Source: a bacterium (GTDB lineage: Bacteria > Verrucomicrobiota > Verrucomicrobiia > Limisphaerales > UBA11358). Taken from it: a DNA stretch of 45,217 nucleotides. Positions 23,810 through 39,417 of this stretch are shown here, one piece after another (the first letter of the stretch is position 1; each line of letters starts with the position of its first letter). The position numbers and the translations under genes are program-made. The DNA lies in the NCBI GenBank assembly GCA_021780375.1, contig JAJXYT010000195.1, positions 1 to 45,217 of the forward strand. The letters run 5' to 3'. Below the pieces are notes generated by a model. That model searched no databases. It had not been told where the DNA came from and was given only the letters and a program-made list of their open reading frames with translations.

Positions 23810-23874
23810 GATTAGCGTTTCCAGCAGAGCCGGTGTGGCGAAATGGCAGACGCACCGGACTTAAAATGCCTGGA
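23810..23874 (+). repeat. Decayed 5' half of tRNA-Leu, left direct repeat of the island
   Basis: GATTAGCGTTTCCA (23810-23823) followed by GCCGGTGTGGCGAAATGGCA (from 23829), GACGCAC and CTTAAAAT closely copies the upstream flank and 5' half of the intact tRNA-Leu at 39330. Acceptor 5' strand, D-arm and anticodon loop are recognisable. The anticodon stem carries a substitution and an extra G, and the variable loop, T-arm and acceptor 3' strand are absent. It is therefore not a functional tRNA. It probably marks the other end of an insertion into this tRNA gene. Confidence 0.8.
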
Positions 23875-24457
23875 GACATTTCGCTGGAAGGAATGCTACG
23901 ACGAGAATGGCACCCGCCATGCCATCGCTGAGGAGCCGCCGCCTCAGCCATCTGATTTTAGAAGGGTCAATTCCTGGTGGAACTCCAGATATCAAGTCAC
24001 CATTTCTGTAATACACGATAAGCAGGGACGCGCCCGGTTCTCCTTCCAGCCGGAGGACAGATTGGCGATCGCCATTCGAACAATGGAGGCTTCTGCAGTC
24101 TGGCCAGTCGAGGCCGAGCAAAAGGCCCAAGAGAAACTCGCCAGCCTCATCTCCGAGGAATCATTCGCGACATACCTGCTGATCGGCCAATTCCCGGAAG
24201 TCAGCAAACGCAGCCAGGTGACTTACTTGTTCCGGAAAGGCCGCCCAACGATAGCTTTGCGCGAGAATGACGAGTGGTCCCACGCCCTGTGCGCTCTTTG
24301 CCTGCACCCCATCGGCTATTATGGTAATACGTGGGCCGGGGTCATGTGTCCGACAGACGAGGTCATAGCCCATCTTTTGATGATGCGCGGCTCCGAAGAA
24401 AAATTCTGGGCAAATGCGAATCAACACCCGCTCGACCATCCTTTCGCTGGAGTGTAA
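23843..24457 (+). CDS. Hypothetical protein (204 aa) starting inside tRNA-derived sequence
   Basis: The ATG lies in the D-arm of the tRNA-Leu remnant, so the first 10 or so residues (MADAPDLKCLE) are encoded by former tRNA sequence. The body looks like a genuine soluble protein, with FRWKECYDENGTRH, YLFRKGRPTIALRENDEW and ALCLHPIGYYGNTWAGVMCP. It has no membrane segment or catalytic motif I recognise. Two Cys in ALCALCLHP and one in VMCP could be structural. If the initiation codon is truly this ATG, the gene gained its start from the tRNA. No later in-frame ATG occurs before residue 81, so a shorter start would remove much of the protein. Confidence 0.6.
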   Translation: MADAPDLKCLETFRWKECYDENGTRHAIAEEPPPQPSDFRRVNSWWNSRYQVTISVIHDKQGRARFSFQPEDRLAIAIRTMEASAVWPVEAEQKAQEKLASLISEESFATYLLIGQFPEVSKRSQVTYLFRKGRPTIALRENDEWSHALCALCLHPIGYYGNTWAGVMCPTDEVIAHLLMMRGSEEKFWANANQHPLDHPFAGV

Positions 24458-24673
24458 ATGTTTTGATAGCGGGCAGAAACGGGTCGTTCCGATCTGTGCA
24501 ACGCCCCACCCATTGCCTCCCGCCTGCATGAATACTGCCGCCCTCCATCGTCCCTCATCCGGTTTCCCGTGCACTCAACCTTCAACTCCGCGACACGTCG
24601 GAGCGCCCGCAATTCCAATGCTTGAAGTGCCGTACTAAAGACCGGTTTCAACTCATGCCTGAGGGAAGGAAAA

Positions 24674-25396
24674 TTGAGCGAGCACCAGCCACTCCAGGCA
24701 GTGTCGCCGTTCGGATGGGTTGACGACGAACGCGGAAACGGCACCCGCGTTCCGATCGTGGATTTCGATTTTGATACGGTGTTCGAGCGAATGGATGGTG
24801 AAGTTTCCGCAGCCCCACGGCCTGCCGATCCGCCGCCGCTAACCAGGCTGCTTTCGCCGCGCGAGTTGCAGCACGCACTCGCTGTCGCAAAAGCGATTCT
24901 CAAGCGGTCTTCACCCCGATCCCGGGCCACGCGCGCGACATGGCGCAACCCTGAAATACGCGCTCGAAGAATTGCGGGGCTTCTGCGTTCAATGCAAACC
25001 CGCGACCGGCAACAAATGCGTGAGTCCATGTTGAAACTCTGGCGAGAACGCCGACCGGAATTGCTGGCCAAAATCAGGGCGTTCACGCGCGACCCCGAAT
25101 ACCGCCGCCGCGCTTCAGTGCGCTCCCGTGCAATGTGGGCCAATCCCGTTCTGCGGGAAAAAACACTCGCCTGGCGGCGTAGCCCCGAAGGGCGCATGAG
25201 AATATCCATTACATCACGCCGATACTATCGCGAGCATCCGGAGGCGCGCCGAAATGCGGCTGAAAGGGCGCGAGCAATGTGGCGTGACCCTAGTTATCGC
25301 GCTCGACGCCACCAGACATTATACGCGACACTGGAAGCGAAACATCAGGCAATCAAAAAACGCCTTGTGCTGCTTCCGCCCGCGTCTTGCTCTTGA
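24674..25396 (+). CDS. Basic helical-repeat protein resembling NUMOD-type DNA-binding regions
   Basis: This 240-residue, strongly basic protein is proposed to start at TTG 24674, preceded by GGAAGGAAAA, a good ribosome binding site. From about residue 95 it has several loosely repeated units with tryptophan and Arg-Ala patterns: TWRNPEIRARR, MWANPVLREKT, EHPEARRNAAERARAMWRDP, MWRDPSYRARRH. Such repeats occur as DNA-contacting modules next to GIY-YIG or HNH homing nucleases. No nuclease domain is visible here. It may bind DNA; that is inferred from charge and repeat type. Confidence 0.5.
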   Translation: MSEHQPLQAVSPFGWVDDERGNGTRVPIVDFDFDTVFERMDGEVSAAPRPADPPPLTRLLSPRELQHALAVAKAILKRSSPRSRATRATWRNPEIRARRIAGLLRSMQTRDRQQMRESMLKLWRERRPELLAKIRAFTRDPEYRRRASVRSRAMWANPVLREKTLAWRRSPEGRMRISITSRRYYREHPEARRNAAERARAMWRDPSYRARRHQTLYATLEAKHQAIKKRLVLLPPASCS

Positions 25397-25628
25397 CCTT
25401 CAACAAGCAACTCCGTACTGTGCTAAAGTCTGATGATGGCGGATCAACCCTCAGATACTTTCACCAGCAGTTGGCCATCTGGATCCTAGGGCTGCACGCA
25501 AGTGCCAATTTCTACGTGCAACTTCCGCACTTGGGGTCCGACCACATTTAACTGTGAGCCTTTGCTTTTGATGCGCGCAACCGTAACAGGTGATGTCGCG
25601 GCATCACGTTCGCTTTACTGCACATCAT

Positions 25629-26711
25629 TTATCTAAGCGTATGTTTAATCGCTTTGACTACCGCAGCCCAATCGACTTTTGGCGTCAGGTGACACCATGA
25701 CAACCTCAGTGCGCCCTTCACTCGGTCCTCGCTTAGTTCCATGGCCGTAAGTACATGGCTGGCGGTGTAATTCTGTGAAGTGCAAGCCGAACCGTTCGAA
25801 ATCGCCACTATGTCCTTCAGTGCCAGCATCACCGCTTCAGAATCCAGACCTGGCACGGCAATATTCAATGTGCTCGGCACAGATATCGTCACGTCTCCGT
25901 TCGGTACGCCACCTACCTGTGCAAAGGCCGAAAGGGCTTCCTTTTTGATGGCCGCACAATACTTGTTTCGCTTCTCCACATCGCGCGCCGCCAGTTCCGC
26001 CGCTTTCCCCAACGCCACAATCAATGCCACCGGCAACGTTCCCGGGCGCAACCCGCGCTCCTGCCCGCCACCATAAGCCAACGGGGTCAAAGGCGGTCGC
26101 TCAAACCCACGCCGCCTCATGACCAGTGCCCCTATACCCTTTGGCGCATATATCTTGTGGCCGCTGATGCTGATTAAGTCAATCCGGGGGTTTTGTAATT
26201 CCGGGAGGCGCTTTCCGAATCCTTGCGCCGCATCCACGTGAAAAAATACCTCATGTTTCGCCAGCACCTTCGCAATGGCTTCGACCGGCTGAATTATCCC
26301 CGTCTCATTGTTCACCTGCATTACCGACACCATCAGCGTGTCCGGTCGCAGCGCAGCGGCCACGGCGGCGGCCGTCACCGCCCCATCCTCTTCCGGCTTC
26401 ACCAGCGTCACGGTGAATCCGTGTTCCGCCAGATGCTCCAGCGGTTCTAGCACCGCCTTGTGCTCGATGGCGGTCGCTACGATATACTTCCGCCCTGTCT
26501 TCTCGCCGTGTGCCTTTAGCCCAAGGATTGCCAGATTGTTGCTCTGCGTCGTGCTACTGGTAAAAATGACCTCCTCGCGCTGGCACTTCACCACCGCCGC
26601 CACCTGGTCGCGTGGCTTCTTGAATGGCGCAAAAGCGTCTTTCTTTGTGCCGCGGCATACTCTGTTCAGGGGTTCAGTCAATACCGCCCGCGCTTGTTCC
26701 AATCGTGACAA
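25629..26711 (-). pseudogene. N-terminally truncated cysteine desulfurase (IscS/DndA-like)
   Basis: The 360-residue frame is a class V aminotransferase-fold cysteine desulfurase. It has EVIFTSSTTQSNNLAILGL, the PLP lysine in SGHKIYAPKGIGAL and the sulfur-carrying cysteine in ISNGSACTSQNY. The family's first 50-60 residues, including the DNAATTP block and the GNPSS turn, are absent. The region before KKPRDQVAAVV does not align, and the first codon is TTG. It is most likely a broken gene, although the catalytic residues survive. The active-site context recalls DndA of DNA phosphorothioation, but no dndBCDE genes are here. It is divergent from the Wadjet operon across a 54-bp gap. Confidence 0.7.
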
Positions 26712-26734
26712 GCACGCTCGGTTTGAATTATGAT
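26705..26734 (+). promoter_or_regulatory. Probable sigma70 promoter of the Wadjet operon
   Basis: GTGACA (26705-26710), an 18-bp spacer and TATGAT (26729-26734) form a reasonable -35/-10 pair. A start near 26741 would give a leader of about 25 nt before the small ORF and reach jetA. It overlaps the first codons of the truncated desulfurase on the other strand. Confidence 0.5.
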
Positions 26735-26765
26735 CGCTGCGTCCTTTCTCACGGGATATGAAATT

Positions 26766-26882
26766 ATGGCCACGGTCAAAAATAAACCGTTGGATGAACT
26801 CTTTGGGGGCGGCTCATCGTCCCCTCAGGCTGGCGTGCATCAGGCCAGACTCCTCCAAAGCCGCAGAAACCTTGACGACTAA
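26766..26882 (+). CDS. 38-residue ORF abutting jetA
   Basis: This ORF starts MATVKNKPLDELFGGG and ends RRNLDD. Its TAA (26880-26882) is immediately followed by the jetA ATG at 26883, so reinitiation could couple them. The N-terminal LDELFGGG recalls the start of ParB-like proteins, but the match is too short to call. It may be a leader peptide or the remnant of a gene in front of the Wadjet operon. Confidence 0.35.
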   Translation: MATVKNKPLDELFGGGSSSPQAGVHQARLLQSRRNLDD

Positions 26883-28364
26883 ATGGCTGGAAATTCATCA
26901 ACGTTAAGCGCTCGACTTTTGCCGGTTCTGGCCGGAGGATTTTTCCGCCCGCTGGCCCGCCCTTCAGCGCCGTTGTATGTGGATTGTGCTGATCGGTTGG
27001 AGCTGGCGAGTGATGATGGTGGCCAGCTTTCACATTCGGATGCCATCGCGCTGATTCGCGATGCGCTGGTCGCTCACCCCAGTCTGAAACTGGACGAGGA
27101 TGAGGGCGGCCGGTTTGGGGACGTTCGCCAGCGGGCGGGCCAAATTTTTAACCGGCTGCTTGAAGCAGGTTGGCTGGAAGACCGTCCTGCCAGCCTTGAC
27201 GAACGGTGGGTGGTCATTTCGCCGCGTTTGTCCCCGTTGCTTGGGCTGTTGAGGGGATATGCGGAGGACGACCTCGCCGAACTGAAAGATTTTGCGGCGA
27301 CGGTTCGCTCTGTTTGCGAAACATTGCTGGCCGAGGGCGCGCTGGATCCAGCCAAGCGCAATCCTGAGGAACTGAGGCAGGTGGTGAAAGAATTGTTCGA
27401 CCGCGCAACGCGCGCGGGTCAGCAAATGCGGGCGGTCGAAACGGTGATTCTCCGTTACGCCCAGGAGCAACGCGTAAGCAGCGGCCCGAATGAAACACTC
27501 CGTCGTTTCCTGATTGAGTTCCATGAGGGTGAGCACATGGTTTGTTACGACACGTTGGAGCATGGCGGCTTGTTGCCCAAACTCAAACAAGCCCGGCTTG
27601 TTGCCCAAGACGCCTGGGCAAACCCATATGTGAAGCAACGGTTGGCCGAGGGTATCGCGAAGCACCGTGGAATTGATGAAACCTCGGCCTATGGCGATGC
27701 TGAGGAAATGCTGGCAAGTTTGGAGCGGGCGATCGCTGGCATCTCTGCGAAGCAACGAATCATTGATGAGCGTATTGCCGAATTCAGTGAACTTTCTGCT
27801 GCCCGTTATCGCTATCAGACAGAGATGCGCGGGCGAAGTCCTGAAATGGTAAAAGCGTATCTCCAAGCCGCCGACCAGCAGCATTCCGGTAGCTCCTTTG
27901 CTGACCTCGCCAATCAGCCCGGCATGATGATTTTAAGCCCAATGGTCGAATTCTATTTTGGGCAAGACGCGCTTGCCCGCCCACGCCGCGCACGACTGCC
28001 AGTGGACTTGGAAATCGCACGACCGCCTGCAGTGGGTGATTCGTTGGATGCACTGGAGCGAATCCGTAGGCAAAACCTTTACGCGGTGACTCCACAACGG
28101 GCCGGTCGTTTGATTGAAAAGTTTTTGCCGGTGAAGGGGGCGATGCTCTCGACGGAAGATTTAAAATTGAGCACCGAGGACGACTTGCTGGATTTCCTCG
28201 CGGTGCTGGCTTATGACCGGGCTTCCGGACCGCGTGGGCACAAACCCATTCGCTGGCGTATCCGCACGCCCAGGCAGGAACACGGGTTGGAGCCCGAGAA
28301 GATTCCGACCGACGTCGTTGCGGGGCGCCGTGTTGAGCGGATCGCAATTGAAAGGACCGCATGA
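26883..28364 (+). CDS. jetA: Wadjet kleisin-like subunit JetA
   Basis: This 493-residue protein is the first gene of a complete jetABCD set. JetA is the MukF-like kleisin that bridges the SMC heads of JetC. Visible here: an N-terminal winged-helix-like region (LLPVLAGGFFRPLARPSAPLY, then SDAIALIRDALVAH), a long helical middle (LKQARLVAQDAWANPYVKQR, AEEMLASLERAIAGISAKQR) and a C-terminal region ending RVERIAIERTA. It overlaps jetB by ATGA (28361-28364). The complex detects small circular DNA by loop extrusion and JetD cuts it, giving plasmid immunity. Assignment relies on operon context and overall organisation. Confidence 0.82.
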   Translation: MAGNSSTLSARLLPVLAGGFFRPLARPSAPLYVDCADRLELASDDGGQLSHSDAIALIRDALVAHPSLKLDEDEGGRFGDVRQRAGQIFNRLLEAGWLEDRPASLDERWVVISPRLSPLLGLLRGYAEDDLAELKDFAATVRSVCETLLAEGALDPAKRNPEELRQVVKELFDRATRAGQQMRAVETVILRYAQEQRVSSGPNETLRRFLIEFHEGEHMVCYDTLEHGGLLPKLKQARLVAQDAWANPYVKQRLAEGIAKHRGIDETSAYGDAEEMLASLERAIAGISAKQRIIDERIAEFSELSAARYRYQTEMRGRSPEMVKAYLQAADQQHSGSSFADLANQPGMMILSPMVEFYFGQDALARPRRARLPVDLEIARPPAVGDSLDALERIRRQNLYAVTPQRAGRLIEKFLPVKGAMLSTEDLKLSTEDDLLDFLAVLAYDRASGPRGHKPIRWRIRTPRQEHGLEPEKIPTDVVAGRRVERIAIERTA

Positions 28365-29011
28365 CACCGACATGGCCATCATTCTGGGCACACATTCCGG
28401 ATGCCGACCGCCCAGCTTTGCGTGAAGTTCTTACCGACTTGCTTGCCACCGGCGTTTTGCTCGGCGACGTTGGTCGGGACCGGGAGCTTTACCAGACGGC
28501 GAGGAAGTATGATCAGGAACTGGCCGATTATCTATCGTTGTTGAACCTGACGCTGTTCCCCGATCCTGACCGGCCGATTCTTCAAGTGCGCCCAATTCCG
28601 GGCGAGTGCGGTCTCACCGCCCGCTTCACCAAGGATGAGACGCTGGTGGTGCTGACGCTTTGGCGGATTTACGACGACGCAATTATGGAGCGCTCTACAA
28701 ATATCGTTACTCTGTCAGCGGACGATCTCTTTGCGAAACTGAGGCTTTACTTCGAGCACATCGAGCCACCCAAGCCAACTCAACTCGAACGTATCCTGGG
28801 CAAACTTCGTTCCCGCCGCCTCATTCGCTTTCAGTCCAACGACGAACAGTTTGGAGAATCACGGATCGAAATCCTGCCCACGCTCGCTCGGGCAATTCCC
28901 TTCGAGCGCCCGGAAGAATGGGCACAGTCCGTCGCACTTTTCCAGCAGGCCGCTGACGTCACAAACGGTGATTCCGAGGGTGCAGCCGTTGACGAGGAGG
29001 GCAAGCCATGA
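28361..29011 (+). CDS. jetB: Wadjet KITE subunit JetB (DUF4194)
   Basis: This 216-residue protein matches the DUF4194/MukE-like KITE subunit in size and pattern: REVLTDLLATGVLLGD, LADYLSLLNLTLFPDPDRPI, then TLWRIYDDAIMER and LRSRRLIRF with tandem winged-helix character. A disordered acidic tail follows (GDSEGAAVDEEG). KITE dimers bind the kleisin JetA and contact DNA. It overlaps jetA and jetC by ATGA on both sides, which suggests tightly coupled translation and fixed stoichiometry. Confidence 0.84.
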   Translation: MTPTWPSFWAHIPDADRPALREVLTDLLATGVLLGDVGRDRELYQTARKYDQELADYLSLLNLTLFPDPDRPILQVRPIPGECGLTARFTKDETLVVLTLWRIYDDAIMERSTNIVTLSADDLFAKLRLYFEHIEPPKPTQLERILGKLRSRRLIRFQSNDEQFGESRIEILPTLARAIPFERPEEWAQSVALFQQAADVTNGDSEGAAVDEEGKP

Positions 29012-32000
29012 ACTTGCAGCGTATCTCGCTTACGCGAATCATCGCCGTGAACTGGTATGGATTCCGGCAAATCTTTGATGTGTCTAATCATACGCTCATT
29101 TCGGGGGCGTTTGGCACCGGGAAGTCTGCGCTCCTCGACCTGATCCAATACGTCATGCTTGGTGAGGATTGGCGCCCAAACCGCGCCGCCGCCGGTGCGG
29201 CGCGAGGTCGGACGCTGTTGAGCTATTGCTTGTGCGATACAAATTACACCCGTGATGGCGAACCACAATACATCCGGCGCGACGGGGTCACTTTAATTGG
29301 CTTGGAATTCACATGGCCGGCCGAGCGAAATAAAGAGCCACGCCGTGAAACGTGGGGCGTTCGTATCCAGTTCTCCAGCCCGACCTCGAGGGCGGAGCAA
29401 ACTTATTTCTGTCTCCCTGCGCGGCTCGATTGGGCAGACCTCGCGCCGTCCGGTAAACTCTTGTCCGAGGAGGAATTCAAATCTTACGTCCGTCGCGAAT
29501 ACGAATCGTCCTCACCCCGTAAATGTCTGTTTCCTCGTCAAAAAGAGTACCTCGCCGAAATGGCGACGCCCCATCACCTGTGGTTTGACGAAAAGCAATT
29601 TCCAAAAACTTTTCCGAAAGCCATCGCTTTCGAGGCCGAGAAGGACGTGGAAAAATTCATCCGGCAGTTCATTCTTGAGGAAAACCCGCTTGAAGTCAGC
29701 GATGTAAAGGCGGCTGTCAGCGCGTATCGCGAGACTCAGGCACGGCTGGAATGTCAGGAAGCGGAAGCCAAGCAACTGGCTGTTATTCGGACAAGACATG
29801 ACGTTTATGAATACGCAAAGCGTGAAGCGGCGATTCTACGGCATCTGGGCGATGCGTTGGAGCAGGATCGTTTGAGCGAACTCGTCGCCCGCCACGAGAA
29901 AGACCTTACCGATCTCCGCACCAAACACACGGCGGACAACGAAACCTTCGACAAATCGGTGGCTGAGGTAAATCGGCTGACGGCGGCGCTGGGTGGGTTC
30001 CATTTGGATTCCGACGAGGCTGAATTGCAGCAAAAGCTGGCGGAACAGGCAACCAAACGCGCCGAACAGAAGGGATTGCTTGAGGCACAGCAAAGTGTTC
30101 GCGCCCGGTTACGCGATTTACGTCACCGCTGGGCGCAGTGGCTGAAGCGGGGGGCGACGGTCCAGCTCGACGGTCTCGCTGAATTACTGACGGTTGAAGA
30201 TCGGATGTTGGATGCGCTGGCCGCGCCGGATGTAACCGCCGGGCTAAAGACGATTCCCGACTTGGCAGAAAGATTCGGGCAGTTGTTTCAAGGAGTGGAA
30301 AAACTGCTCGAACCGCACACCAAGGAAATTAATGTGATTTCCAACCGGTTGAAGGAAATCGCCGCCAACTTGGAACGGATTGAGGAGCGCCAGACCCCTG
30401 GTTCGTTCCCGCTGTTTCAAGCCATCAAGGCGCGGCTTGCCTCTTCGCCCACCCCGCCGGAACAGTTGTGTCGCTTAATCGAAGTCAAACCCGACGCCGA
30501 AGACTGGCGCAATGCCACCGAACTGGTTCTGGGCCGGAATCGCTTTGCCATTGTCGTGGGTTCGCCAGAGGACTATCGCGCCTCCTTGGAAGTCCTGCGC
30601 AAGCGTGCGCCAGCAGAAAGGGGCGTGGACGAGTCACTCGTGCATCCTCGAGAAGCTGCCGAGTTATCCACGGAAGTACGGAAAAGCTCGCTCGCCGGGA
30701 AAATCGAAATGGCGAAAGCTCCGGAAGGCATCCGGCGTGTGGCCGAGTGCTTTGCCAAACACTTGCTGGGCCGCGTCATTGCCGTCGAGCGTGCCGAGGA
30801 TTTGGATGCGTGCGACCGTGGTATCACGCGCGACGGCATTTATAAACAAACGCCGATACGCCGCCGCCTCCGCCAAGTGCCCGGCTTCGAGTTCACGCTC
30901 GGAACGGAAGGATTGAAACGCCTCCGCGAAACGCTGACGCGGGAACAACAGGGGCTGATGGCGGCGAGGACAAATAAGCAAGCGTTGATGGATTCGGTCA
31001 ACGCATGGCTGGAGACCGGCAAACAAGGCGGTTTGAGTGACCCGCGCCTGCCTGATCGGAGTGGGGAACTTTTCCGGCTGCCAATCTTGGAACAGGAGCT
31101 TTCCACGCTGAAGTTGAGAATTGATTTTCTGTCCACGAAAGAGCGTACGGCTCGCTTGCAAAAGTTGAAAGACCTTCAGGCCGACCTCGCGAAGGCCAAT
31201 CAGGAAATCGGCAGATTGGGGGATGCACGAGACCAATTTGGACAAAAACAAAAGGTGCTTCAGGAGGCCCTTGATGAGGCAACCGAAAAACTGGAGTCCG
31301 CAAAATTGCTGACGACTAAAAATCGTGTCGCCATGCCGCAAGGCATTCTCGACGCCGAGATACAGGAACGGCTTGGGAAATTGAAAAACGAATTCAAATC
31401 ATGGAGCGACCGCAAAGATGCGGCAATCAAGCGTTCGGGCGATGCAGGTGTGGAAGTTGAGAAGGCTCGAAACGCCCGCAATAACGAACGTCGCGTCTTG
31501 ATGGATGCGATGGATGCCAACGGCCGTCTGAAGCATCCGCACTATCGCCACGATAGCTTCGACCCGGAGGAAGACTCGAATGACCGTTGGCAGGCTCGCC
31601 TTCGCTTGCTGGAGGAAGTCCAGCTCGCGGAATCGCGTAAGCACGCCGCCGAGAGACGGAAGGATTGGGAGCGTCGGTTGAAGGACCAGGTGCTCAACCG
31701 GTTGAACGAGAATCTACAGGGTTCAGAGCGCACCGTCCGGCAGTTGCGCACTTACCTCGATGTTCAAGTCGGCAAACACAAATACCGCATAAGCCAGGAA
31801 CGCGACCCGGCCTTCGCAGCGCACTGGAGTTTGCTCGATTCCGGTTTTGAGCCAACGGATGAATTGATGGCTGCTGGCAGAACGCAGGAAGTCCAGCTGG
31901 CTCTTGATGAATTGATGGCTGCGGTCGAGGTCAACGGTGCAGCGGATGCTCGCGCGCTGTCTTTGCTCGATTACCGCAATTACCACCGATACGACATCAA

Positions 32001-32415
32001 GATGCGGTCGGCGGACCACGCGAGCGGCCCGGAGATTTCGTTTGGCCGGAGCGGCGTCAGCATGTCTGGCGGTGAAAACCAGGCGCCATTCTTCATCTCC
32101 ATGCTGGCAGCCGCGCGGCGCGTTTATGACTTGGGTGGCGGACGCTCGCAACATCTCGGCTTGGTGGTTATGGACGAGGCGTTCTCCAAACTTTCCGGCG
32201 ACGGCGTGGAGGATTGTCTTGAACTGGCCCGCAATTTTAACCTCCAGCTTTTGATGGCGTTCCCCATTGACCGTCTCGGTGTGATGACTCCGTATGCCGA
32301 TACCGTCGTTGAGTTGCGCAAGGAGGAAGTTCGCGATGCCGCCGGGTTTATTACGGAACTCGACAACATCCCCATCGTCCTGCCGCCGGACGATGTGCAG
32401 GAATCCATTTCATGA
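29008..32415 (+). CDS. jetC: Wadjet SMC ATPase JetC
   Basis: This 1135-residue SMC protein is the motor of Wadjet. The Walker A loop GAFGTGKS (residues 33-40) follows an N-terminal RIIAVNWYGFRQ strand. Long coiled coils run from about 240 to 460 and 660 to 930, separated by a hinge-like globular segment (about 480-620, with DAEDWRNATELVLGRNRFAI). The C-terminal head carries the signature SGGEN (1020-1024) and Walker B LVVMDEAF with D1056 and E1057. ATP-driven loop extrusion on DNA, with JetA and JetB, is established for the family. It overlaps jetB and jetD by 4 nt. Confidence 0.92.
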   Translation: MNLQRISLTRIIAVNWYGFRQIFDVSNHTLISGAFGTGKSALLDLIQYVMLGEDWRPNRAAAGAARGRTLLSYCLCDTNYTRDGEPQYIRRDGVTLIGLEFTWPAERNKEPRRETWGVRIQFSSPTSRAEQTYFCLPARLDWADLAPSGKLLSEEEFKSYVRREYESSSPRKCLFPRQKEYLAEMATPHHLWFDEKQFPKTFPKAIAFEAEKDVEKFIRQFILEENPLEVSDVKAAVSAYRETQARLECQEAEAKQLAVIRTRHDVYEYAKREAAILRHLGDALEQDRLSELVARHEKDLTDLRTKHTADNETFDKSVAEVNRLTAALGGFHLDSDEAELQQKLAEQATKRAEQKGLLEAQQSVRARLRDLRHRWAQWLKRGATVQLDGLAELLTVEDRMLDALAAPDVTAGLKTIPDLAERFGQLFQGVEKLLEPHTKEINVISNRLKEIAANLERIEERQTPGSFPLFQAIKARLASSPTPPEQLCRLIEVKPDAEDWRNATELVLGRNRFAIVVGSPEDYRASLEVLRKRAPAERGVDESLVHPREAAELSTEVRKSSLAGKIEMAKAPEGIRRVAECFAKHLLGRVIAVERAEDLDACDRGITRDGIYKQTPIRRRLRQVPGFEFTLGTEGLKRLRETLTREQQGLMAARTNKQALMDSVNAWLETGKQGGLSDPRLPDRSGELFRLPILEQELSTLKLRIDFLSTKERTARLQKLKDLQADLAKANQEIGRLGDARDQFGQKQKVLQEALDEATEKLESAKLLTTKNRVAMPQGILDAEIQERLGKLKNEFKSWSDRKDAAIKRSGDAGVEVEKARNARNNERRVLMDAMDANGRLKHPHYRHDSFDPEEDSNDRWQARLRLLEEVQLAESRKHAAERRKDWERRLKDQVLNRLNENLQGSERTVRQLRTYLDVQVGKHKYRISQERDPAFAAHWSLLDSGFEPTDELMAAGRTQEVQLALDELMAAVEVNGAADARALSLLDYRNYHRYDIKMRSADHASGPEISFGRSGVSMSGGENQAPFFISMLAAARRVYDLGGGRSQHLGLVVMDEAFSKLSGDGVEDCLELARNFNLQLLMAFPIDRLGVMTPYADTVVELRKEEVRDAAGFITELDNIPIVLPPDDVQESIS

Positions 32416-33506
32416 ACCTTGATTCCAAGCGATGGCGGGGCTGTGCTTGGCTGCGGGCGCTTGCGTTTCAATGGCACAAGTCACGTGGCTTTCCTGCGTC
32501 AAATTTCCAACGTCCATATTCGCGGGATTGGGAGGAATTGCTTCAAGCCGGCAACCTGATCTCCGCTGAATCGCGAGCCGAATCGTTCCGTGAAGCTAAA
32601 GAGCTGGAGGCCGCCGGGCTGGTGGAGCTCAAGACGGTTCGCTACCGTCCGTACCAGATTGAACGGATTGTGATCCCATTCGCCGCCGAATCGCGCTTGC
32701 GGGAGCTGTTTGTGGGCGAACTTCCGGCTCCTCCCGATCCAAGATTTGATTTTGCCTCAGTGAAATGGGCTTCACCACTCGCCTTCCTGACCAACGAATC
32801 GGTCTCGGTTGCCCCGGATGACCTGCTCCAGATGAACCAATTCCTGCTGCAAGAACCGCGAAACCAAGCGGTCGTTCCCATAAAAGAACGGTCACTGGAG
32901 ATATTCGGTGACGAAAAACGCCTCGATGCTTTGGTATCCACCTCGCTATTTCGGGCGGGCCGTCTCGATTGGGTGAGGGATTTGAAATGTGAGATCATCG
33001 GCGAACCCCTCGCTTGGAAACGCGGCCCGGTTGAAGCCGCTGGCAAGCCGCTCCTCGTCATCGAAAACGCGGCTACTTGGCACTCATATTGCCGCTGGAA
33101 CGAGGAGTGTAAATTATTCAGTGCCGTCGTGTATGGCTGCGGTAACCGTTTCGTGGATGGGTTTCATTTCCTGCCGGACATCTTTCGCGAGCTGGGCGGG
33201 TTGCGCCGCATCCTTTATTTCGGCGACCTTGACCAACGTGGTTTGGAGATTCCGCAGGAAGCTGCCGGCAAGGCGCAAATCCTCGGTTCGATTAGTGTCG
33301 AGCCACACCTCTGGAGCTACCGCCAATTGCTGAAATTGGGGGCGGGACACGGTCAGCCGTATGATGGCGATCGGGCATCACCACAACTTTGCGATTGGCT
33401 GGGCGAATGTGCCGAGCCAGTGCGCCAGTTGTTTTCCGCCGGCCAACGCCTCGCCCAGGAGCACGTCGGTTGGGAATTCCTGAGCAACAGGCATGGAAGA
33501 GACTGA
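32412..33506 (+). CDS. jetD: Wadjet Toprim nuclease JetD
   Basis: This 364-residue protein is the effector nuclease. The C-terminal half is a Toprim fold: LLVIEN with E218 and ILYFGDLDQRG with D272 and D274, the metal-binding residues of the topoisomerase VI-type site. The N-terminal half (residues 1-190) contains a winged-helix-like DNA-binding region (LLQAGNLISAESRAESFREA). JetD homodimers cut plasmid DNA once loop extrusion stalls. All catalytic acidic residues are present, so the system appears intact. The next gene begins 24 bp later. Confidence 0.9.
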   Translation: MNLDSKRWRGCAWLRALAFQWHKSRGFPASNFQRPYSRDWEELLQAGNLISAESRAESFREAKELEAAGLVELKTVRYRPYQIERIVIPFAAESRLRELFVGELPAPPDPRFDFASVKWASPLAFLTNESVSVAPDDLLQMNQFLLQEPRNQAVVPIKERSLEIFGDEKRLDALVSTSLFRAGRLDWVRDLKCEIIGEPLAWKRGPVEAAGKPLLVIENAATWHSYCRWNEECKLFSAVVYGCGNRFVDGFHFLPDIFRELGGLRRILYFGDLDQRGLEIPQEAAGKAQILGSISVEPHLWSYRQLLKLGAGHGQPYDGDRASPQLCDWLGECAEPVRQLFSAGQRLAQEHVGWEFLSNRHGRD

Positions 33507-33530: not shown

Positions 33531-34451
33531 ATGATGAAATCACATACGGAATGGCTTCGGAAGCTCACGGCACTAAATCCTGCTGTGATCAGCCGACTTG
33601 GCTCTGGCAATGAACGATTTGCCCCACATAAACCACTGCTCCTGCTCTGCGTTCTCGAGTTGGTAGAGCAAGGTCAGCTACGCGAACCCAAGTTGAGTTT
33701 GACTCCGGATCTCGCGCTCCGCTTTCAATCTTTCTGGCGAGTTGTGGTTGCCCGTTGGACAACCAAGCCCGATTTGCGGATGCCGTTTCACCATCTCAGC
33801 ACTCAGGAATTCTGGCGGCCGCTGACCAAAGACTTAAATCGCTCAAACCATCGCAGCCTGACAGAAGTTGTGGAGATCGATGCATCGTTCCTGTCAGCGA
33901 TGCAAGACTCGGAATTTCGCAGGCGCGCTCGCGCGGTCTTGGTGAACCACTACTTTCCGCCATTCGAGCAGATTGCCTTGCGGGAGTTGACTGGTATCGG
34001 CGCAAAGGAGGTCGAGTCTGCAGCAGACGAAATAAAGGAAGAGGCGCGCGAATATGCTCGCAACACCGCGCGGGATGCGCGGTTTCGGATTCAAGTCGTC
34101 TCGTCGTATCTTTTCACCTGTGCTTTGACTGGTTATAGTCTCACGACCGTTTCAAGTTCGTCCATCGTTGACGCAGCCCATATTCACGAGCGGCGTGACA
34201 GCAAGAACGACGATCCGCGAAACGGGCTGGCATTGTCAAAAAATGCCCACTGGATGTTTGACGAAGGGCTTTGGTCAATGACCGACGATCTGAAAATCAT
34301 CGTCGCAGAAAAAACTTTTGCCGATTGGAGTCCAGAGGGATTCTCGCTTCGCAATTACCACGGACGACAGCTTTTTTTCCAACGAGGTTGCACATTGCGT
34401 CCCGACAGCAAATACATCGCGTGGCACCGGGAGCACCAATTTCAGGGTTGA
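33531..34451 (+). CDS. HNH endonuclease directly behind the Wadjet operon
   Basis: This 306-residue protein has an N-terminal region with HKPLLLLCVLELVEQGQL, common in HNH proteins of the putative restriction type, and a C-terminal HNH domain. The motif is VDAAHIHERRDSKNDDPRNG with NAHWMFDEGL, giving the His-His pair, the central Asn and the last His. It starts 24 bp after jetD on the same strand, so it is likely co-transcribed. That would make a five-gene defence operon, but HNH genes are often passengers. No cognate methylase is present. ATG at 33534 is an alternative start. Confidence 0.82.
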   Translation: MMKSHTEWLRKLTALNPAVISRLGSGNERFAPHKPLLLLCVLELVEQGQLREPKLSLTPDLALRFQSFWRVVVARWTTKPDLRMPFHHLSTQEFWRPLTKDLNRSNHRSLTEVVEIDASFLSAMQDSEFRRRARAVLVNHYFPPFEQIALRELTGIGAKEVESAADEIKEEAREYARNTARDARFRIQVVSSYLFTCALTGYSLTTVSSSSIVDAAHIHERRDSKNDDPRNGLALSKNAHWMFDEGLWSMTDDLKIIVAEKTFADWSPEGFSLRNYHGRQLFFQRGCTLRPDSKYIAWHREHQFQG

Positions 34452-34675: not shown

Positions 34676-34814
34676 CTGTCAAGTCCCCGGTAGAAAATAC
34701 CGCATCCGGCAGCCCCTTCGGCACCGCCCAGCTCTTGAACACACCATCCTTCTCCAGCCGGAAGTCAAAATGGTGCGTCCGGGAGTGATGCTCTTGCACA
34801 ACGAATCGGCCGGT
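34665..34814 (-). pseudogene. Fragment of a LigD-type 3'-phosphoesterase domain
   Basis: On the minus strand the residues [20 protein letters not shown] and [13 protein letters not shown] are the start of the 3'-phosphoesterase domain found at the N-terminus of LigD and as a free-standing DNA-repair protein. The His and Asp of THHFDFRLE are the expected metal ligands. The sequence stops after about 45 residues, whereas the domain needs about 120. Upstream residues are unrelated. It is a relic of an NHEJ-type repair gene. Confidence 0.7.
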
Positions 34815-34977
34815 TTGATTTGCCAACGGATGCATTCTTCGAGGATGCGCCCGCCCGCCTCCAGTTTCAAGTGGACCGTGCATGCTCCATTCGGGCCGGA
34901 GTTTCCAAATGTCTCGGTCAAAAAACCAATTTACTATAACAACAAACGTCGTCAGACATTGACCACCACACGCACCA

Positions 34978-36480
34978 ATGATAATACAGACTCCAAAGCC
35001 AATGCCACCACCGAGTATTTCCAAGTCCACCTTCCTGATGGGCCGGCAATGTTCGAAGCTCCTGTGGTTCCGCTACAACGCCAAAGACCAGATCCCCGCG
35101 CCCGACGAGGCGCTGCAAGCCGTCTTTGACCAGGGTACCGAAGTCGGCATACTGGCGCAGCAGCTTTTCCCGGGTGGCGTGGTCATCGCACCCGGCATCA
35201 TCGATCCGCAGGAAGTCATCGCCCAAACGCAGAAGGTGATTCTATCGCGCAAGCCATTGTATGAAGCCGCCTTTAGTTTTCACGGGGGTTACGCGCGTGT
35301 GGACATTCTGGTACCGGTGGCCGGCAATGCCTGGGATTTGGTCGAGGTCAAATCTACCACGCAGCTAAAAGAGGAAGTTCACTTGCCCGATGTCGCTTTC
35401 CAGGCGTTCGTACTTGCCGGCGCCGGTGTTAAACTTCGTAAATGTTTTCTCGCCCACATAAATAATGAATTTGTCCGGCACGGCCCGATTGATCCGCAAA
35501 AGTTTTTTACCCTTGAAGATGTCACCCAGCCGGTCTCGATGATGACCGGAGACATTGAAGAACAAATCGATGCCATGCAGCGTGTCATTGGTGCCAAGTC
35601 GCAACCAGACATCCAGATCGGACCTCATTGCGACAATCCCTACACCTGTGCGTTGCATGAACATTGTTGGTCGTTTCTGCCCGACGCCAGCGTCCTTACC
35701 CTTTACCGGGGCGGTTCAAAAGGTTTCAGTCTCCTCAAGCGCGGCATCCAGAAATTGGCGGACATCCCCGCCGACGTTCCACTCACTGACAATCAGGCTA
35801 TTCAACGCGCAACTTTGCTTGCTGGACAGCCGCATATCGACGGGCCAGCGCTCACAGCTTTTCTCAGTCAGTTGGAATATCCCATCAGTTATCTGGACTT
35901 TGAAACCCTAGGCACGGCGATTCCCCTGTTTGATGACTCCAGCCCTTACCAGCAAATCCCATTTCAATTCTCGCTCCATATCGTCCGCCAACCCGGCGCC
36001 AACCCCGAACATTTCTCATTCCTGGCGGACGGAACCGGAGACCCGCGTCCTGACTTCATGCGGCGCTTGTGTGAAAAATTGCCAACAATAGGGTCCGTGG
36101 TGACTTACAACGCCAGCTTTGAAATTGGACGGTTAAAGCAATGTTGCGAAGTGCTGCCAGAATTCAAACCGTGGTTTCGGACAGTGGAGCCTCGTGTGGT
36201 TGACCTTCTCCAGCCGTTTCGTGGTTTCCGTTACTATCACCCGCAGCAAAACGGCACGGCTTCAATGAAAGCCGTGTTACCGGCGCTGACGGGCCAAGGC
36301 TACGACAACTTGGCGATCCAGGAAGGCGGCGCCGCCAGCCGCGAATATCTTCGGGTGACGTACGGTGAAGTGACCACCGCCGAGCGCCGCCGGGTGCGGC
36401 AAGATTTGGAAGAATATTGCGGTCTCGACACACTCGGCATGATTCAAATCGTGGACCAACTCAAACGCTTTGCAAAATGA
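34978..36480 (+). CDS. DUF2779 protein: Cas4-like PD-(D/E)XK nuclease fused to a DEDD exonuclease
   Basis: This 500-residue protein has two nuclease-like domains. The N-terminal one has D109 (RVDILV) and E123-V-K125 (VEVKST), the PD-(D/E)XK core. C25 plus C218, C224 and C230 ([15 protein letters not shown]) match the cluster-binding pattern of Cas4 and AddB. The C-terminal DUF2779 domain has YLDFET (D307, E309), [11 protein letters not shown] and CGLDTLGM (D484), the DEDD 3'-5' exonuclease pattern. It may process DNA ends. The ATG at 35002 (MPPPSIS) is an alternative start. It is on the same strand as the Wadjet and HNH genes, but 526 bp beyond. Confidence 0.82.
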
Positions 36481-36484
36481 CCGA

Positions 36485-37639
36485 TTATCCTTTGACCGGC
36501 CGCAATTGCGCCGGCTCTTCCAAGATGTCCAGTAGTGCATTGGCGCAGTAAACGCGGTCACGTTTTGCATCACCAACCTGCTTCAAAATCTTCAATCGCT
36601 CCAATCGTTCAATCGCACGCTGCGCCGTCGTGAACGCCACATCCAGTTTTTCAGACGCGCCTTTCACCGTAACGAACGGATTTGCTCCCAGCAATTCAAC
36701 CACGCGCAATGGCGCATTGGTGGAATCACCTGCCACTTGCCTCTGCCAGGCCGCCAGTTTTTCATTGATTCGGGTCGCGCGGCTCAACGCGTCCTCGGAC
36801 ATTCGCGCCACGCCTAGCAGGAAATATTCGATCCATTCACTCCATTCACCACGCTCGCTCACCCCGCGCAACCCGTCGTAATAATCGCGCCGCGCCGCCT
36901 CAAAAAAAGCCGAGAGGTAGAGTAACGGCGTGGGCAGAATGCGCCGCTCAATCAGGAACAGCGTTATGAGCAGACGCCCCACGCGGCCGTTGCCATCCAG
37001 GAATGGGTGAATCGCCTCGAATTGATAATGCGCCAGCGCCACGGTGACAAGCGGCGGCAGGTCTGATTCGTGGACGAACTTTTCCCACGCCGCCATGCAC
37101 GGCTCCACTTCATCAGGCGGTGGCGGCACAAATGACGCCGTGGCTGGCGTGCTACCCGGCTTCCCAATCCAATTCTGGATTTTGCGAAATTTTCCTGGTG
37201 CGGCTTGCCCGCCGTGAACACCGGTCATCAATTTTTCGTGCAACTCCCGAACGATGCGTACACACAAAGGCAGGTCTTTTAGACGGGCAATCCCATGCTC
37301 CAGTGCGACGACGTAATTGCCAACCTCACGCAAGTCCTTAGAACTGCGATCCACGGTCGCGCCGGCCTCAGCTGCCAGCAATTCCCCCAATGTGGCTTGG
37401 GTGCCCTCAATCTTGCTGGACAAAACAGCCTCGCGCTTCACAAACGGTCGCATGAAAACGTGGGGATTTGGCAGGCGCCCACCCTCGCCGGCCAGTTTGC
37501 CAATCAAGCGGTCGGCATCCGACAGGACACGGATCAACCGCGGGGTCCATTCAAACTTCGGCGGCAGCGGCGCCGGCACAAATGCCTCGTATTTGCCCAA
37601 CGGCACTTTCCGGCCTGGAATGTTCGATTTGCTGGCCAT
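36485..37639 (-). CDS. Fic family AMP transferase with N-terminal inhibitory helix
   Basis: From ATG 37639 this is 384 residues. The catalytic motif HPFLDGNGRVGR lies at residues 211-222. The inhibitory motif SSKIEG (residues 74-79, with E78) is present, so it is a self-inhibited class II Fic protein. A C-terminal winged-helix region follows (VVELLGANPFVTVKGASEKL, RAIERLERLKIL), which could bind DNA and autoregulate. An upstream start at 37684 is possible, but it would lie before the mapped -10 box. Fic proteins attach AMP to Thr/Tyr of target proteins; the target is unknown. It converges on the DUF2779 gene with a 4-bp gap. Confidence 0.87.
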   Translation of the reverse strand: MASKSNIPGRKVPLGKYEAFVPAPLPPKFEWTPRLIRVLSDADRLIGKLAGEGGRLPNPHVFMRPFVKREAVLSSKIEGTQATLGELLAAEAGATVDRSSKDLREVGNYVVALEHGIARLKDLPLCVRIVRELHEKLMTGVHGGQAAPGKFRKIQNWIGKPGSTPATASFVPPPPDEVEPCMAAWEKFVHESDLPPLVTVALAHYQFEAIHPFLDGNGRVGRLLITLFLIERRILPTPLLYLSAFFEAARRDYYDGLRGVSERGEWSEWIEYFLLGVARMSEDALSRATRINEKLAAWQRQVAGDSTNAPLRVVELLGANPFVTVKGASEKLDVAFTTAQRAIERLERLKILKQVGDAKRDRVYCANALLDILEEPAQLRPVKG

Positions 37640-37658
37640 AGCGTTACTTTCGACCGTG

Positions 37659-37725
37659 ATAATAGCACGACTCGCTATTTTCACAAAAGCATAAAAACGC
37701 TAATAGCGTCACTTCCTATTTTCAC
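37659..37725 (-). promoter_or_regulatory. Fic promoter with repeated operator motifs
   Basis: On the minus strand TTGTGA (37686-37681), a 16-bp spacer and TATTAT (37664-37659) form a promoter. On the plus strand CTATTTTCAC occurs twice, at 37675-37684 and 37716-37725, 41 bp apart (about four helical turns), with the perfect palindrome CGCTAATAGCG at 37698-37708 between them. The first copy overlaps the -35 box, as a repressor site would. The winged-helix end of the Fic protein is a candidate binder. Confidence 0.6.
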
Positions 37726-37775
37726 CGCTGAAAACAGTGGTTTCCGTGGCACCACTAAGCATCGCGCGTGATGCA

Positions 37776-38258
37776 TTACTGTAAACGAGCGTCTTGGCCT
37801 GCACGCCGTTGTATTTTCAGCGCAGTTTCAACCGCCTTCACAATTTCTTGAATGTTGCAGGGCACTCGCAGTAAAGATACTTGGCATCCACGATTGGCAA
37901 ATTCCCGAACCCACAACTCTGTCGGTTCCCAAGCGGAATCCACAATTATCGGATACTTGATTTTCCGCGCGAACAAAATCCGACACAAGTCCTGTCCACT
38001 AATCCCCGCCATGGTGTCATCTGTAATCAAAAGGTCAGGACTCGACTTCGACAATTCTTCCAAAGCCGCCCCGCTGTCCTCAAAACATCGAATTTCTATA
38101 TCATTAAACGATTCCCGAAGCACGAGAACGAACAAATCAAGGATTACTCGCTCGTCATTAACCATCACGATTTGAAGGGGGCGGACATCAGTCAGTGACC
38201 GACTTTTTGTGGCTCCAGGTCGTGTGCTAGAACCGGTGCGTCCAACAAGAGCCTGCAA
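37776..38258 (-). CDS. Stand-alone receiver-like protein, degenerate
   Basis: This 160-residue protein is a response-regulator receiver fold: LQIVMVNDERVILDLFVLVL, DLLITDDTMAGISGQDL with the candidate phospho-Asp, and PIIVDSAWEP. Two features are unusual: the first acidic pair is ND rather than DD, and the invariant Lys before the last conserved Pro appears to be Val (LLRVPCN). Phosphorylation may not occur normally. No output domain follows. The start is TTG 38258; the ATG at 38165 would cut the first strand. No histidine kinase is nearby. Confidence 0.72.
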   Translation of the reverse strand: MQALVGRTGSSTRPGATKSRSLTDVRPLQIVMVNDERVILDLFVLVLRESFNDIEIRCFEDSGAALEELSKSSPDLLITDDTMAGISGQDLCRILFARKIKYPIIVDSAWEPTELWVREFANRGCQVSLLRVPCNIQEIVKAVETALKIQRRAGQDARLQ

Positions 38259-38264
38259 ACCTAA

Positions 38265-38307
38265 GGGCGGCGGCGGGCCGGGCTCCGCCCGGCTCCGCCT
38301 GCCGCCC
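38265..38307. repeat. Very GC-rich hairpin
   Basis: GGGCGGCGGCGGGCCGGGCT at the left and CCGCCTGCCGCCC at the right fold into a long stem. It is just upstream of the receiver gene and 163 bp before the polyvalent-domain gene. It may be a REP-like element or a transcription pause site. Confidence 0.5.
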
Positions 38308-38469
38308 CTGCACCGTGTTGCTCAGGACACCAGTTCGGCAATCAATATCTATTCTGACTTTCTGGGGCAGTCAGCGGTACCGAAGAAGTGAGGTTAGCCT
38401 TGTTTTTCAGCGGTTTTTGATTTGCGCTGCCAGTAAAAAGTCCTCGCAAAAACTGCCCGTTTTGCTATA

Positions 38470-39192
38470 TTGGTGGGCATCAATGCAACGTCAAACGACA
38501 TCCGCACCGCGGCCTTGGCCGACGCTTGCCGGACGCTTGAGTCAGCCGCTGACTTCACGCGTGGAGGCGGTGCGCCAGCTGCAGGCCACGATGCCGATCA
38601 CGCCAGCCGCTCAAAACGTGTTGAAGAAGAGCAACGGCGGATCATCCAGTGGGCCAAAGAAAACGGGAAGTTAAGCCGCAGCCGCCGCCTTCCGCCGGCC
38701 TTCGCGCACGGTGGCGAGCATGATGTTTTTTTCCAGAAGCGCACCCATCGCTATCTCAAGGCAACTCGGCTCGACCGGCAAAGGGGCTATGGCATTGCCC
38801 TCGGTTCGGTGACCCATGGCGCAACCCCGTCCGAATATCTTGACCGGCTCGCCCTCCAAAACCGGATTTTCCATGACGATATCCGGTTGGAACGCCTGGT
38901 GGAAAATGATGGCAGGCCCATCATCCTCACCTCCCAACCAGCCATCAAGGGAAAAGAGCCAACCCAAGCCGCCCTTGACGAATTGATGTCGGGCAAGGGC
39001 TATGAAAACCTCACCGAAGGCGCTTACTATGATGAGCGGGCCGGTTTATTGGTTTTCGACCTTTTCCCTCGCAACGCCATTCAGGCCGCCGATGGGCACA
39101 TCTATCCCATTGATCCGGTAATTCAGCGCATCGCCTCCGATTTTGGCCAGTTCCTTCGCCAACATCCTGAAACAATCAACCTAGCCCATTGA
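38470..39192 (+). CDS. Protein with a phage/plasmid polyvalent-protein-associated domain
   Basis: The 240-residue frame starts at TTG. The C-terminal 150 residues resemble the putative polyvalent protein domains found in giant multidomain proteins of phages and conjugative elements: HDVFFQKRTHRYLKATR, GSVTHGATPSEYLDRLALQN, IFHDDIRLERLV, TSQPAIKGKEPTQAALDELM and GHIYPIDPVIQRI. The first 90 residues are low in pattern and could be a decayed linker. It is probably a broken-off fragment of a larger mobile-element protein, next to the tRNA end of the island. Function unknown. Confidence 0.6.
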   Translation: MVGINATSNDIRTAALADACRTLESAADFTRGGGAPAAGHDADHASRSKRVEEEQRRIIQWAKENGKLSRSRRLPPAFAHGGEHDVFFQKRTHRYLKATRLDRQRGYGIALGSVTHGATPSEYLDRLALQNRIFHDDIRLERLVENDGRPIILTSQPAIKGKEPTQAALDELMSGKGYENLTEGAYYDERAGLLVFDLFPRNAIQAADGHIYPIDPVIQRIASDFGQFLRQHPETINLAH

Positions 39193-39309
39193 CGCAGTCG
39201 GAATACGGCTCCTTTCGCGTGCTTCGTGGTTAAATCTCTGTGCTCCCTGCATTCTTTGCGGTTGGAAAAATCCATGTGCAAGTTCGCGCTTCCATTTGGA
39301 GTCTTTCGT

Positions 39310-39374
39310 GATTAGCGTTTTCCATTGATGCCGGTGTGGCGAAATGGCAGACGCACAGGACTTAAAATCCTGGG
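39310..39374 (+). repeat. Right direct repeat of the island (tRNA upstream flank and 5' half)
   Basis: GATTAGCGTTTTCCA and the following 5' half of tRNA-Leu match 23810-23874 except for a few bases. Together the two copies bracket 15.5 kb. Confidence 0.75.
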
Positions 39375-39417
39375 ACCGTAAAAAGTCGTGTGAGTTCGAG
39401 TCTCACCACCGGCACCA
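39330..39417 (+). tRNA. tRNA-Leu(UAA)
   Basis: A complete 88-nt class II tRNA: acceptor GCCGGTG pairs with CACCGGC (39407-39413), discriminator A, and CCA is encoded. The D-arm TGGCGAAATGGCAGACGCA fits tRNA-Leu. The anticodon stem CAGGA/TCCTG encloses CTTAAAA, with anticodon TAA at 39363-39365. There is a long variable arm, and the T-arm GTGAG-TTCGAGT-CTCAC is perfect. It stands at the right end of the proposed island. Confidence 0.95.

What the first reader, a model, noticed from the sequence alone, without database searches (positions are those of the whole stretch)
23810..39417. A 15.5-kb island bounded by a tRNA-Leu remnant and the intact tRNA-Leu, carrying Wadjet
About 65 bp (upstream flank plus 5' half of tRNA-Leu) is repeated in direct orientation at the two ends, and everything between is accessory: Wadjet, HNH, nuclease fusion, Fic, truncated or phage-like genes. 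The repeated part is the 5' rather than the usual 3' part of the tRNA, with a break near the anticodon loop. No integrase is visible, so the element is probably old or was mobilised by an enzyme encoded elsewhere.
Basis: partly seen in the sequence, partly recalled or inferred. Interest (0 to 1): 0.75.

Follow-up and report, generated by a model that had tools for sequence, protein, structure and literature searches.

The report
Defence island anchored at tRNA-Leu
A 15.5-kb block of defence genes sits between a broken half and an intact copy of a leucine tRNA gene, and related bacteria suggest that this tRNA is a recurrent landing site for mobile DNA that replaces the front half of the tRNA instead of the usual back half.

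Summary
The repeat is real: a 39-nt 5' half of tRNA-Leu(UAA) (one mismatch) at 23829-23867 and the intact gene at 39330-39417, 15.5 kb apart, same strand, the only such pair in the genome. The relative G024 has one intact tRNA-Leu between bshA and DUF4139 and lacks the island's genes there. The 5' break is a pattern: 18 of 320 genomes of the order hold isolated 5' halves ending at the same anticodon loop. They mark elements with a tyrosine integrase beside the restored tRNA, reading away from it; of the 80 best integrase relatives (5 are query loci), 60 start 55-155 bp from a divergent tRNA, 55 of these tRNA-Leu. The window's island shares the crossover point but is not an intact member: no integrase, no family end sequences, a left end cut inside a gene, and a right tRNA with native-like upstream sequence. 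Best reading: an integrase-less defence island (Wadjet, HNH, Fic) moved in trans, or by homology-assisted recombination.

The parts
21830..22957 (+). bshA-like glycosyltransferase, left flank
23804..23828 (+). native-like upstream stretch kept before the half tRNA
   Evidence: 23804-23873 matches G024's single tRNA-Leu region, 72-bp alignment at 89%
23829..23867 (+). 5' half of tRNA-Leu(UAA), 39 nt, ends after the anticodon loop CTTAAAA plus T
23843..24457 (+). gene cut at its 5' end; its ORF starts inside the tRNA half; relatives carry about 53 more N-terminal residues if they start at their presumed methionine
24674..25396 (+). uncharacterised arginine-rich ORF
   Evidence: only a weak PHROG match, E 0.0087
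25629..26813 (-). DndA-like cysteine desulfurase whose start region does not match the family (probably degraded 5' end)
   Evidence: TIGR03235 E 4.8e-126, model positions 44-353 of 353, below its cut-off; PADLOC SspA/DndA
26883..28364 (+). Wadjet JetA
   Evidence: PF18982 E 3.3e-26
28361..29011 (+). Wadjet JetB
   Evidence: PF13835, PADLOC JetB1
29008..32415 (+). Wadjet JetC (SMC-like)
   Evidence: PADLOC JetC1 E 1.8e-127
32412..33506 (+). Wadjet JetD, scored best as PADLOC JetD3
   Evidence: PADLOC JetD3 E 9.7e-60, PF09983
33531..34451 (+). HNH endonuclease resembling phosphorothioate-DNA-dependent restriction enzymes
   Evidence: PF13391; NF045808 E 9.8e-29 over nearly full length but under its cut-off
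34978..36480 (+). DUF2779 protein with a weak Cas4-like region
   Evidence: PF11074 E 2e-38, PF01930 E 0.0016 below cut-off
36485..37684 (-). Fic protein (SoFic-like)
   Evidence: PF02661, PF13784; PADLOC SoFic E 1.9e-115
37776..38258 (-). response-regulator receiver domain
   Evidence: PF00072
38470..39192 (+). kinase domain of polyvalent-protein type
   Evidence: PF18762 E 2.7e-13
39252..39329 (+). native-like upstream region of the intact tRNA
   Evidence: 39252-39428 is 90% identical to G024 around its single tRNA-Leu
39330..39417 (+). intact tRNA-Leu(UAA), right boundary
   Evidence: ARAGORN, Rfam 60.2 bits
41240..42682 (+). DUF4139 gene, right flank
   Evidence: match in 36 of 59 genomes searched; beside tRNA-Leu in G024 and G023

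Best explanation
The anticodon loop (CTTAAAA) of tRNA-Leu(UAA) is a recurrent crossover site in this order. Elements with a tyrosine integrase recombine there; the host's 5' half is left at the far end, and the element supplies a new 5' half with its own upstream region. The window's island lies at this tRNA and its left junction falls on the same point, but it has lost, or never had, the integrase and both element-specific ends. Its left end joins the tRNA loop to the interior of a gene, and its right tRNA has native-like upstream sequence. One event that gives both ends: a chromosomal defence segment lying just upstream of tRNA-Leu in a related strain was moved as a unit into this strain's tRNA-Leu, by an integrase acting in trans on the tRNA loop and on a chance loop-like site inside the cut gene. 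Shown by sequence: repeat, breakpoint, single-tRNA relatives, the integrase family beside tRNA-Leu, the cut gene. Inferred: that the integrases cut at the loop, movement in trans, the donor, the circle.
For: Direct repeat, unique in the genome. G024 and G023 have one tRNA-Leu beside DUF4139. 5' halves ending at the loop in 18 of 320 genomes, 19 places, 13 genera; reversed pattern 0. In 4 of 17 half-bearing genomes searched, half and full-length tRNA share a contig (G282, G074, G089, G115), and in G030 the half and a 48-nt tRNA start cut by the contig end do; in all 5 the half lies 5', same orientation, 6.1-38.7 kb away. 4 of these 5 have an integrase (G030, G115, G074) or a piece of one (G282) beside the right copy. 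Left junction inside a gene with longer relatives. Right upstream region native-like.
Against: The island has none of the family's end signatures and no integrase, so its link to the family rests on one shared breakpoint. None of the 4 relatives of the cut gene reads CTTAAA at the junction (nearest: CTGAAA in G117), so a loop-like site in the donor gene is a guess. Only about 25 bp upstream of the left half is native-like. I found no genome with the same island beside a single tRNA-Leu, but JetC was sought in only 59 genomes. The genome is 84.7% complete, so absence of an integrase elsewhere is not proof.
Confidence: 0.55

Rival explanations
1. Homology-assisted illegitimate recombination: DNA from a relative recombined by homology at the tRNA and its flank on the right and was joined on the left at a few shared bases in the anticodon loop. 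No integrase took part.
For: Gives the same two ends, including native-like upstream sequence on the right; no integrase on the contig and none of the family found in the genome; no relative of the cut gene has the full loop sequence.
Against: The break coincides with the loop at which 9 of 10 isolated 5' fragments of 95% identity or more end (the window's own is one of the 9); a random break would rarely fall there.
Confidence: 0.27
2. Decayed full element: an integrase-bearing element inserted, then deletions removed its left end up to the loop and its right end with the integrase, and the right upstream region was replaced by native sequence.
For: An element of this family sits behind bshA at tRNA-Leu in G030; G089 has a half and tRNA with no family integrase on the upstream side.
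Against: Needs several separate events, one ending exactly at the loop; the native-like stretch on the right is at least 78 bp.
Confidence: 0.1
3. Tandem duplication of the tRNA with its upstream region, accumulation of unrelated genes between the copies, and loss of the 3' part of the left copy by deletion.
For: Both copies keep native-like upstream sequence.
Against: In the rows listed no two full-length matches share a contig, although several genomes have two on different contigs; it does not explain the loop as breakpoint.
Confidence: 0.06

Closest known systems
Islander tRNA-gene islands, 5'-fragment class (PMC4383910, passages read: 159 islands with a 5' fragment, 3760 with a 3' fragment)
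   Same: tRNA gene plus displaced 5' fragment upstream, same orientation
   Different: Islander rejects candidates without an integrase; the window has none
pTN3-like archaeal integrases (PMC8371274, passages read)
   Same: attB is the 5' half of a tRNA gene, and the restored tRNA is expressed from the integrase side; the review says this is seldom met in bacteria
   Different: archaeal; relation of the integrases was not tested; expression in the present family was not tested
G030 (UBA7542) element behind bshA at tRNA-Leu
   Same: same genus, same tRNA, same breakpoint, defence cargo (type I restriction-modification, Mrr)
   Different: has a TrwC relaxase and a tyrosine integrase, and its ends look like those of the family
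Wadjet defence system
   Same: complete jetABCD order
   Different: JetA-C score best as type I, JetD as JetD3 in PADLOC
Tycheposons (search listing only; otherwise recalled)
   Same: tRNA-anchored islands with cargo (recalled)
   Different: not compared here

Membership tests
tRNA-gene genomic island | tRNA gene and displaced fragment, same orientation, 5' fragment upstream | tested here: met
tRNA-gene genomic island | integrase gene inside | tested here: not met
   six-frame PF00589 search: 4 matches in the genome, none on this contig
tRNA-gene genomic island | relatives with one uninterrupted tRNA between the same flanks | tested here: met
   G024 (bshA - tRNA - DUF4139); G023 shares only the right flank
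tRNA-Leu 5'-half integrase elements (described here) | break at the anticodon loop | tested here: met
tRNA-Leu 5'-half integrase elements (described here) | divergent family integrase next to the restored tRNA | tested here: not met
   (no match in L111, the window's right end)
tRNA-Leu 5'-half integrase elements (described here) | direct repeats, mostly 12-bp spacing, upstream of the tRNA; TTTY near +16 after the left loop | tested here: not met
Integrative mobilizable/conjugative element | relaxase | tested here: not met
   none among the ORFs searched; other frames not searched
Wadjet | adjacent jetA, jetB, jetC, jetD | tested here: met
Wadjet | plasmid restriction in cells | not testable with these tools
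   needs experiment

The most novel reading that the evidence does not exclude
In Verrucomicrobiota a family of tyrosine integrases has made the anticodon loop of leucine tRNA genes (four anticodons seen, at least 19 changes of target on the integrase tree) an integration platform in which the mobile element takes over the upstream region of the tRNA, so that expression of an essential tRNA depends on the integrase side of the element; and the same platform moves integrase-less chromosomal defence islands in trans, keeping a native tRNA promoter, as in the window.
Probability: 0.33. Interest if true: 0.72.

Novelty: new member of a known kind. Interest (0 to 1): 0.5.

Why it matters
Islands with a 5' tRNA fragment are a small minority in the catalogue read here (159 of 3919). 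A verrucomicrobial family that lies on the 5' side at 60 of its 63 tRNA-adjacent loci, mostly at tRNA-Leu, would let one ask how a cell tolerates a mobile element supplying the front half and upstream region of an essential tRNA. The window adds a Wadjet-bearing island at the same site without an integrase, a case that an island finder requiring an integrase would reject.

Tried and rejected
Composition as proof of foreign origin: GC is flat and 4-mer distance only mildly raised; not decisive. The left half as reaching into the 3' anticodon stem: rejected, because CCTGG lines up with coding sequence of relatives. The missing N-terminus of the cut gene elsewhere in the window: best chance-level match E 0.09. 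Relatives of the polyvalent kinase in viral contigs: none confirmed. The full-length relative of the cut gene in plasmids: no match. Gene 23218-23703 as a guide to the left flank: weak matches in 3 other genomes of 293. Literature on verrucomicrobial tRNA-Leu integrases: listings (20 of 31 papers shown; 2 of 2; 15 of 873; 12 of 675; 10 of 33) showed none by title; of these papers only PMC4383910 and PMC8371274 were opened, by passages. Williams 2002 is not held, so its statements are second-hand. One search read only one locus through a file error and was repeated.

Full report
Observation. The window is the whole of contig C204 of a 4.0-Mb, 210-contig genome, 84.7% complete. The intact tRNA-Leu(UAA) lies at 39330-39417. 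A partial copy lies at 23829-23867 on the same strand: 39 nt with one mismatch, ending after the loop CTTAAAA and one T. With upstream bases the repeat is 57 nt at 84%, or 70 nt at 86% by BLAST, E 3.5e-15; the next match in the genome is E 0.01. The spacing is 15501.

Relatives without the island. In G024 (bshA relative 89% identical) the order is bshA - 5.6 kb - one intact tRNA-Leu - 0.7 kb - DUF4139, with no half copy and no match at E 1e-8 to the window's island proteins or LysM in that stretch. Its 5.6 kb looks by eye like an efflux operon, which I did not search. In G023 a relative of the gene at 12703, the tRNA-Leu and DUF4139 are neighbours. JetC has a match at E 1e-20 in 7 of 59 genomes, the window's own included, and in neither G024 nor G030. 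So, relative to these two, the segment is an insertion or replacement at this tRNA.

The 5' half is a pattern. In 59 genomes searched with the tRNA region, 10 isolated 5' fragments of 95% identity or more are listed, one of them the window's own; 9 end at or within a few bases after the anticodon loop, and one (G009 C71) near tRNA position 25. I left out G030 C250:41685 (cut by its contig end) and G025 C250 (two pieces of one diverged tRNA-like stretch). No isolated 3' fragment of 95% or more is listed; three of 83-87% are. Two exact patterns that exclude intact tRNAs were run on 320 genomes of the order: 9 genomes had the loop followed by a base other than T, and 9 others the loop plus T followed by a base other than C; together 18 genomes, 19 places, 13 genera; the reversed control pattern gave 0. 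The 19 contexts show no 3' half; two of them, in G089, share the same upstream sequence and may be one locus assembled twice. The window (one mismatch) and G012 (next base C) escape these patterns. One further 97% fragment in G138 stops inside the loop. I gave 17 of the 18 genomes, G030 being known: in 4 of 17 the half and a full-length tRNA share a contig (G282 38.7 kb, G074 7.5, G089 7.2, G115 6.1 kb apart). In G030 the right copy is 48 nt long, runs past the loop and is cut by the contig end, 32.3 kb from the half. In all five the half lies 5' in the same orientation. The other 13 were not resolved on one contig; G157, G175 and G094 gave no full-length match and G003 only a 77% one.

The elements. 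G030 (integrase 100% identical and contig of equal length to UBA7542, Verrucomicrobia subdivision 3) has its half 1.9 kb behind bshA. Between the ends lie a small protein that I read as HTH/excisionase-like (no Pfam match), a TrwC relaxase, type I restriction-modification genes, an Mrr-type nuclease, a large serine recombinase and, next to the right copy, a tyrosine integrase reading away from it. G115 and G074 have full-length relatives of this integrase at the same place and a relative of the small protein; G282 has a 180-residue integrase piece; G089 has no family integrase on the upstream side, only a weakly matching ORF just 3' of the tRNA. Six integrases share invariant R251, K279, H345, R348, H371 and Y382 (the catalytic roles are recalled). 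Of the 30 tRNA loci that one search returned, 7 have a clear relative just upstream (L120, partial; L121, L122, L123, L124, L128, L137) and L116 a weak one.

Distribution. 74 of 80 titles name Verrucomicrobiota taxa; the others read bacterium (2), Klebsiella, Dechloromonas, Pirellulaceae and Hydrogenedentota, all MAGs whose labels may be wrong. Of 80 loci, 63 have a tRNA within 600 bp upstream of the integrase match (55-155 bp); 60 of these are divergent: 55 tRNA-Leu (27 TAA, 11 CAA, 10 TAG, 7 CAG), 4 Met, 1 Arg. Three more tRNA-Leu are in the other orientation. 17 have no tRNA called, of which L204, L209 and L210 show tRNA sequence cut by a contig end or by N. Two cautions: the query integrases were chosen because they lie beside tRNA-Leu(TAA), and five loci (L204, L221, L226, L247, L251) are query loci themselves; some genomes give more than one locus. 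On a tree of 61 integrases (the 60 plus L204) the target label needs at least 19 changes, shuffled mean 30.2, 0 of 200 as low: targets are clustered but often switched.

End signatures. In 55 of 60 divergent loci the stretch from -135 to -45 upstream of the tRNA holds a direct repeat of 7 bp or more at 9-14 bp spacing; of the 40 printed, most have a spacing of exactly 12 (common form AGTGNCRCAA); 50 mononucleotide shuffles give a mean of 1.1 and a maximum of 3. The stretch can overlap the start of the integrase gene. As a check against this test, the native region of G024 also passes at 7 bp, but with spacing 14 and another sequence, so the 12-bp form is the better mark. After the loop at the left end, 17 of 20 halves (19 plus G012) have TTTC or TTTT starting at 14-18, with 16 at position 16; shuffles give 1.7, maximum 5. 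The window's right tRNA (4 bp) and left half (3 bp) do not pass the repeat test, and its left end has TTTC at 13.

The window's ends. Right: 39252-39428 is 90% identical to G024 around its tRNA. Left: the similarity to G024 begins at 23804, 25 bp before the half. After the loop comes ORF 23843-24457. Of 293 genomes, 8 including the window's own have a match to it; relatives in G030, G117, G242 and G118 are 70-74% identical, align from residue 7-11 of the window protein, and run about 53 residues further upstream if they start at the presumed methionine. The missing part was not found in the window. The relatives read AAG CAT AAA, AAG CTG AAA, AAG CAC CCC and AAG CAC CAA at the junction: two of four share AAA, none has CTTAAA. 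So the island's left end is a cut gene joined to the tRNA at the loop; how much sequence the partners shared is unknown. The G030 relative follows an HsdR-like gene.

Mechanism. If a chromosomal stretch from inside that gene to the loop of a native tRNA-Leu formed a circle and recombined with the loop of another tRNA-Leu, both ends come out as seen: recipient upstream plus 5' half, cut gene, cargo, donor upstream plus 5' half joined to recipient 3' half. An integrase in trans could do it; so could uptake of such DNA with homology on the right and a few shared bases on the left. The shared breakpoint favours the first; the missing integrase and the unmatched gene sequence favour the second. I rate them 0.55 and 0.27.

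Cargo. Wadjet jetABCD is complete in order; an HNH endonuclease, a DUF2779 protein with a weak Cas4-like region, Fic, a receiver domain and a polyvalent-type kinase domain follow. The HNH protein resembles phosphorothioate-dependent restriction enzymes below the curated cut-off, and the desulfurase is closest to DndA but lacks a match to the first 43 model positions. It is a defence island with at least two genes that look damaged.

Novelty. tRNA-gene islands and their 5' minority class are known (159 of 3919, PMC4383910, passages). A restored tRNA expressed from the integrase side is described for archaeal pTN3-like integrases and called seldom in bacteria (PMC8371274, passages). The listings showed no paper on this verrucomicrobial tRNA-Leu family by title. 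I file the window as a new member of a known kind; the family around it is the more interesting part.

Noticed in passing
26883-33506; L334, L335: Wadjet JetA-C score best as PADLOC type I but JetD as JetD3; in G021 and G026 (operons 47-59% identical) JetA and JetD, the two parts tested, show the same mixture.
   Followed up: partly
33531-34451; L334:9786-10730: HNH protein next to Wadjet resembles phosphorothioate-dependent restriction enzymes (below cut-off); a 30% relative lies near Wadjet in G021.
   Followed up: partly
25629-26813: DndA-like cysteine desulfurase with a start region that does not match the family; no other dnd gene among the ORFs searched.
   Followed up: partly
14000-22957: The bsh gene block lies between the gene at 12703 and tRNA-Leu in the window and G024, and just upstream of the half in G030, whereas G023 has the 12703 relative directly beside the tRNA and no close bshA match; the block may itself be a variable part of this locus.
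   Followed up: no
L331 (G282 C43:63001-83000): In the 38.7-kb G282 element one of the two genes searched is a glycoside hydrolase, so cargo is not only defence.
   Followed up: no
L144:13265-14839: The G030 element also encodes a large serine recombinase, perhaps a nested element.
   Followed up: no
L230, L232, L241, L258, L279: Relatives of the integrase lie beside tRNA-Met (4) and tRNA-Arg (1), so the family is not confined to leucine tRNAs.
   Followed up: partly
23218-23703: Small ORF with a cysteine-rich end just outside the left boundary; weak relatives in 3 other genomes of 293.
   Followed up: partly
L208, L269 and others: Some MAG titles (Klebsiella, Dechloromonas) do not fit the company their integrases keep and may be wrong labels.
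   Followed up: no
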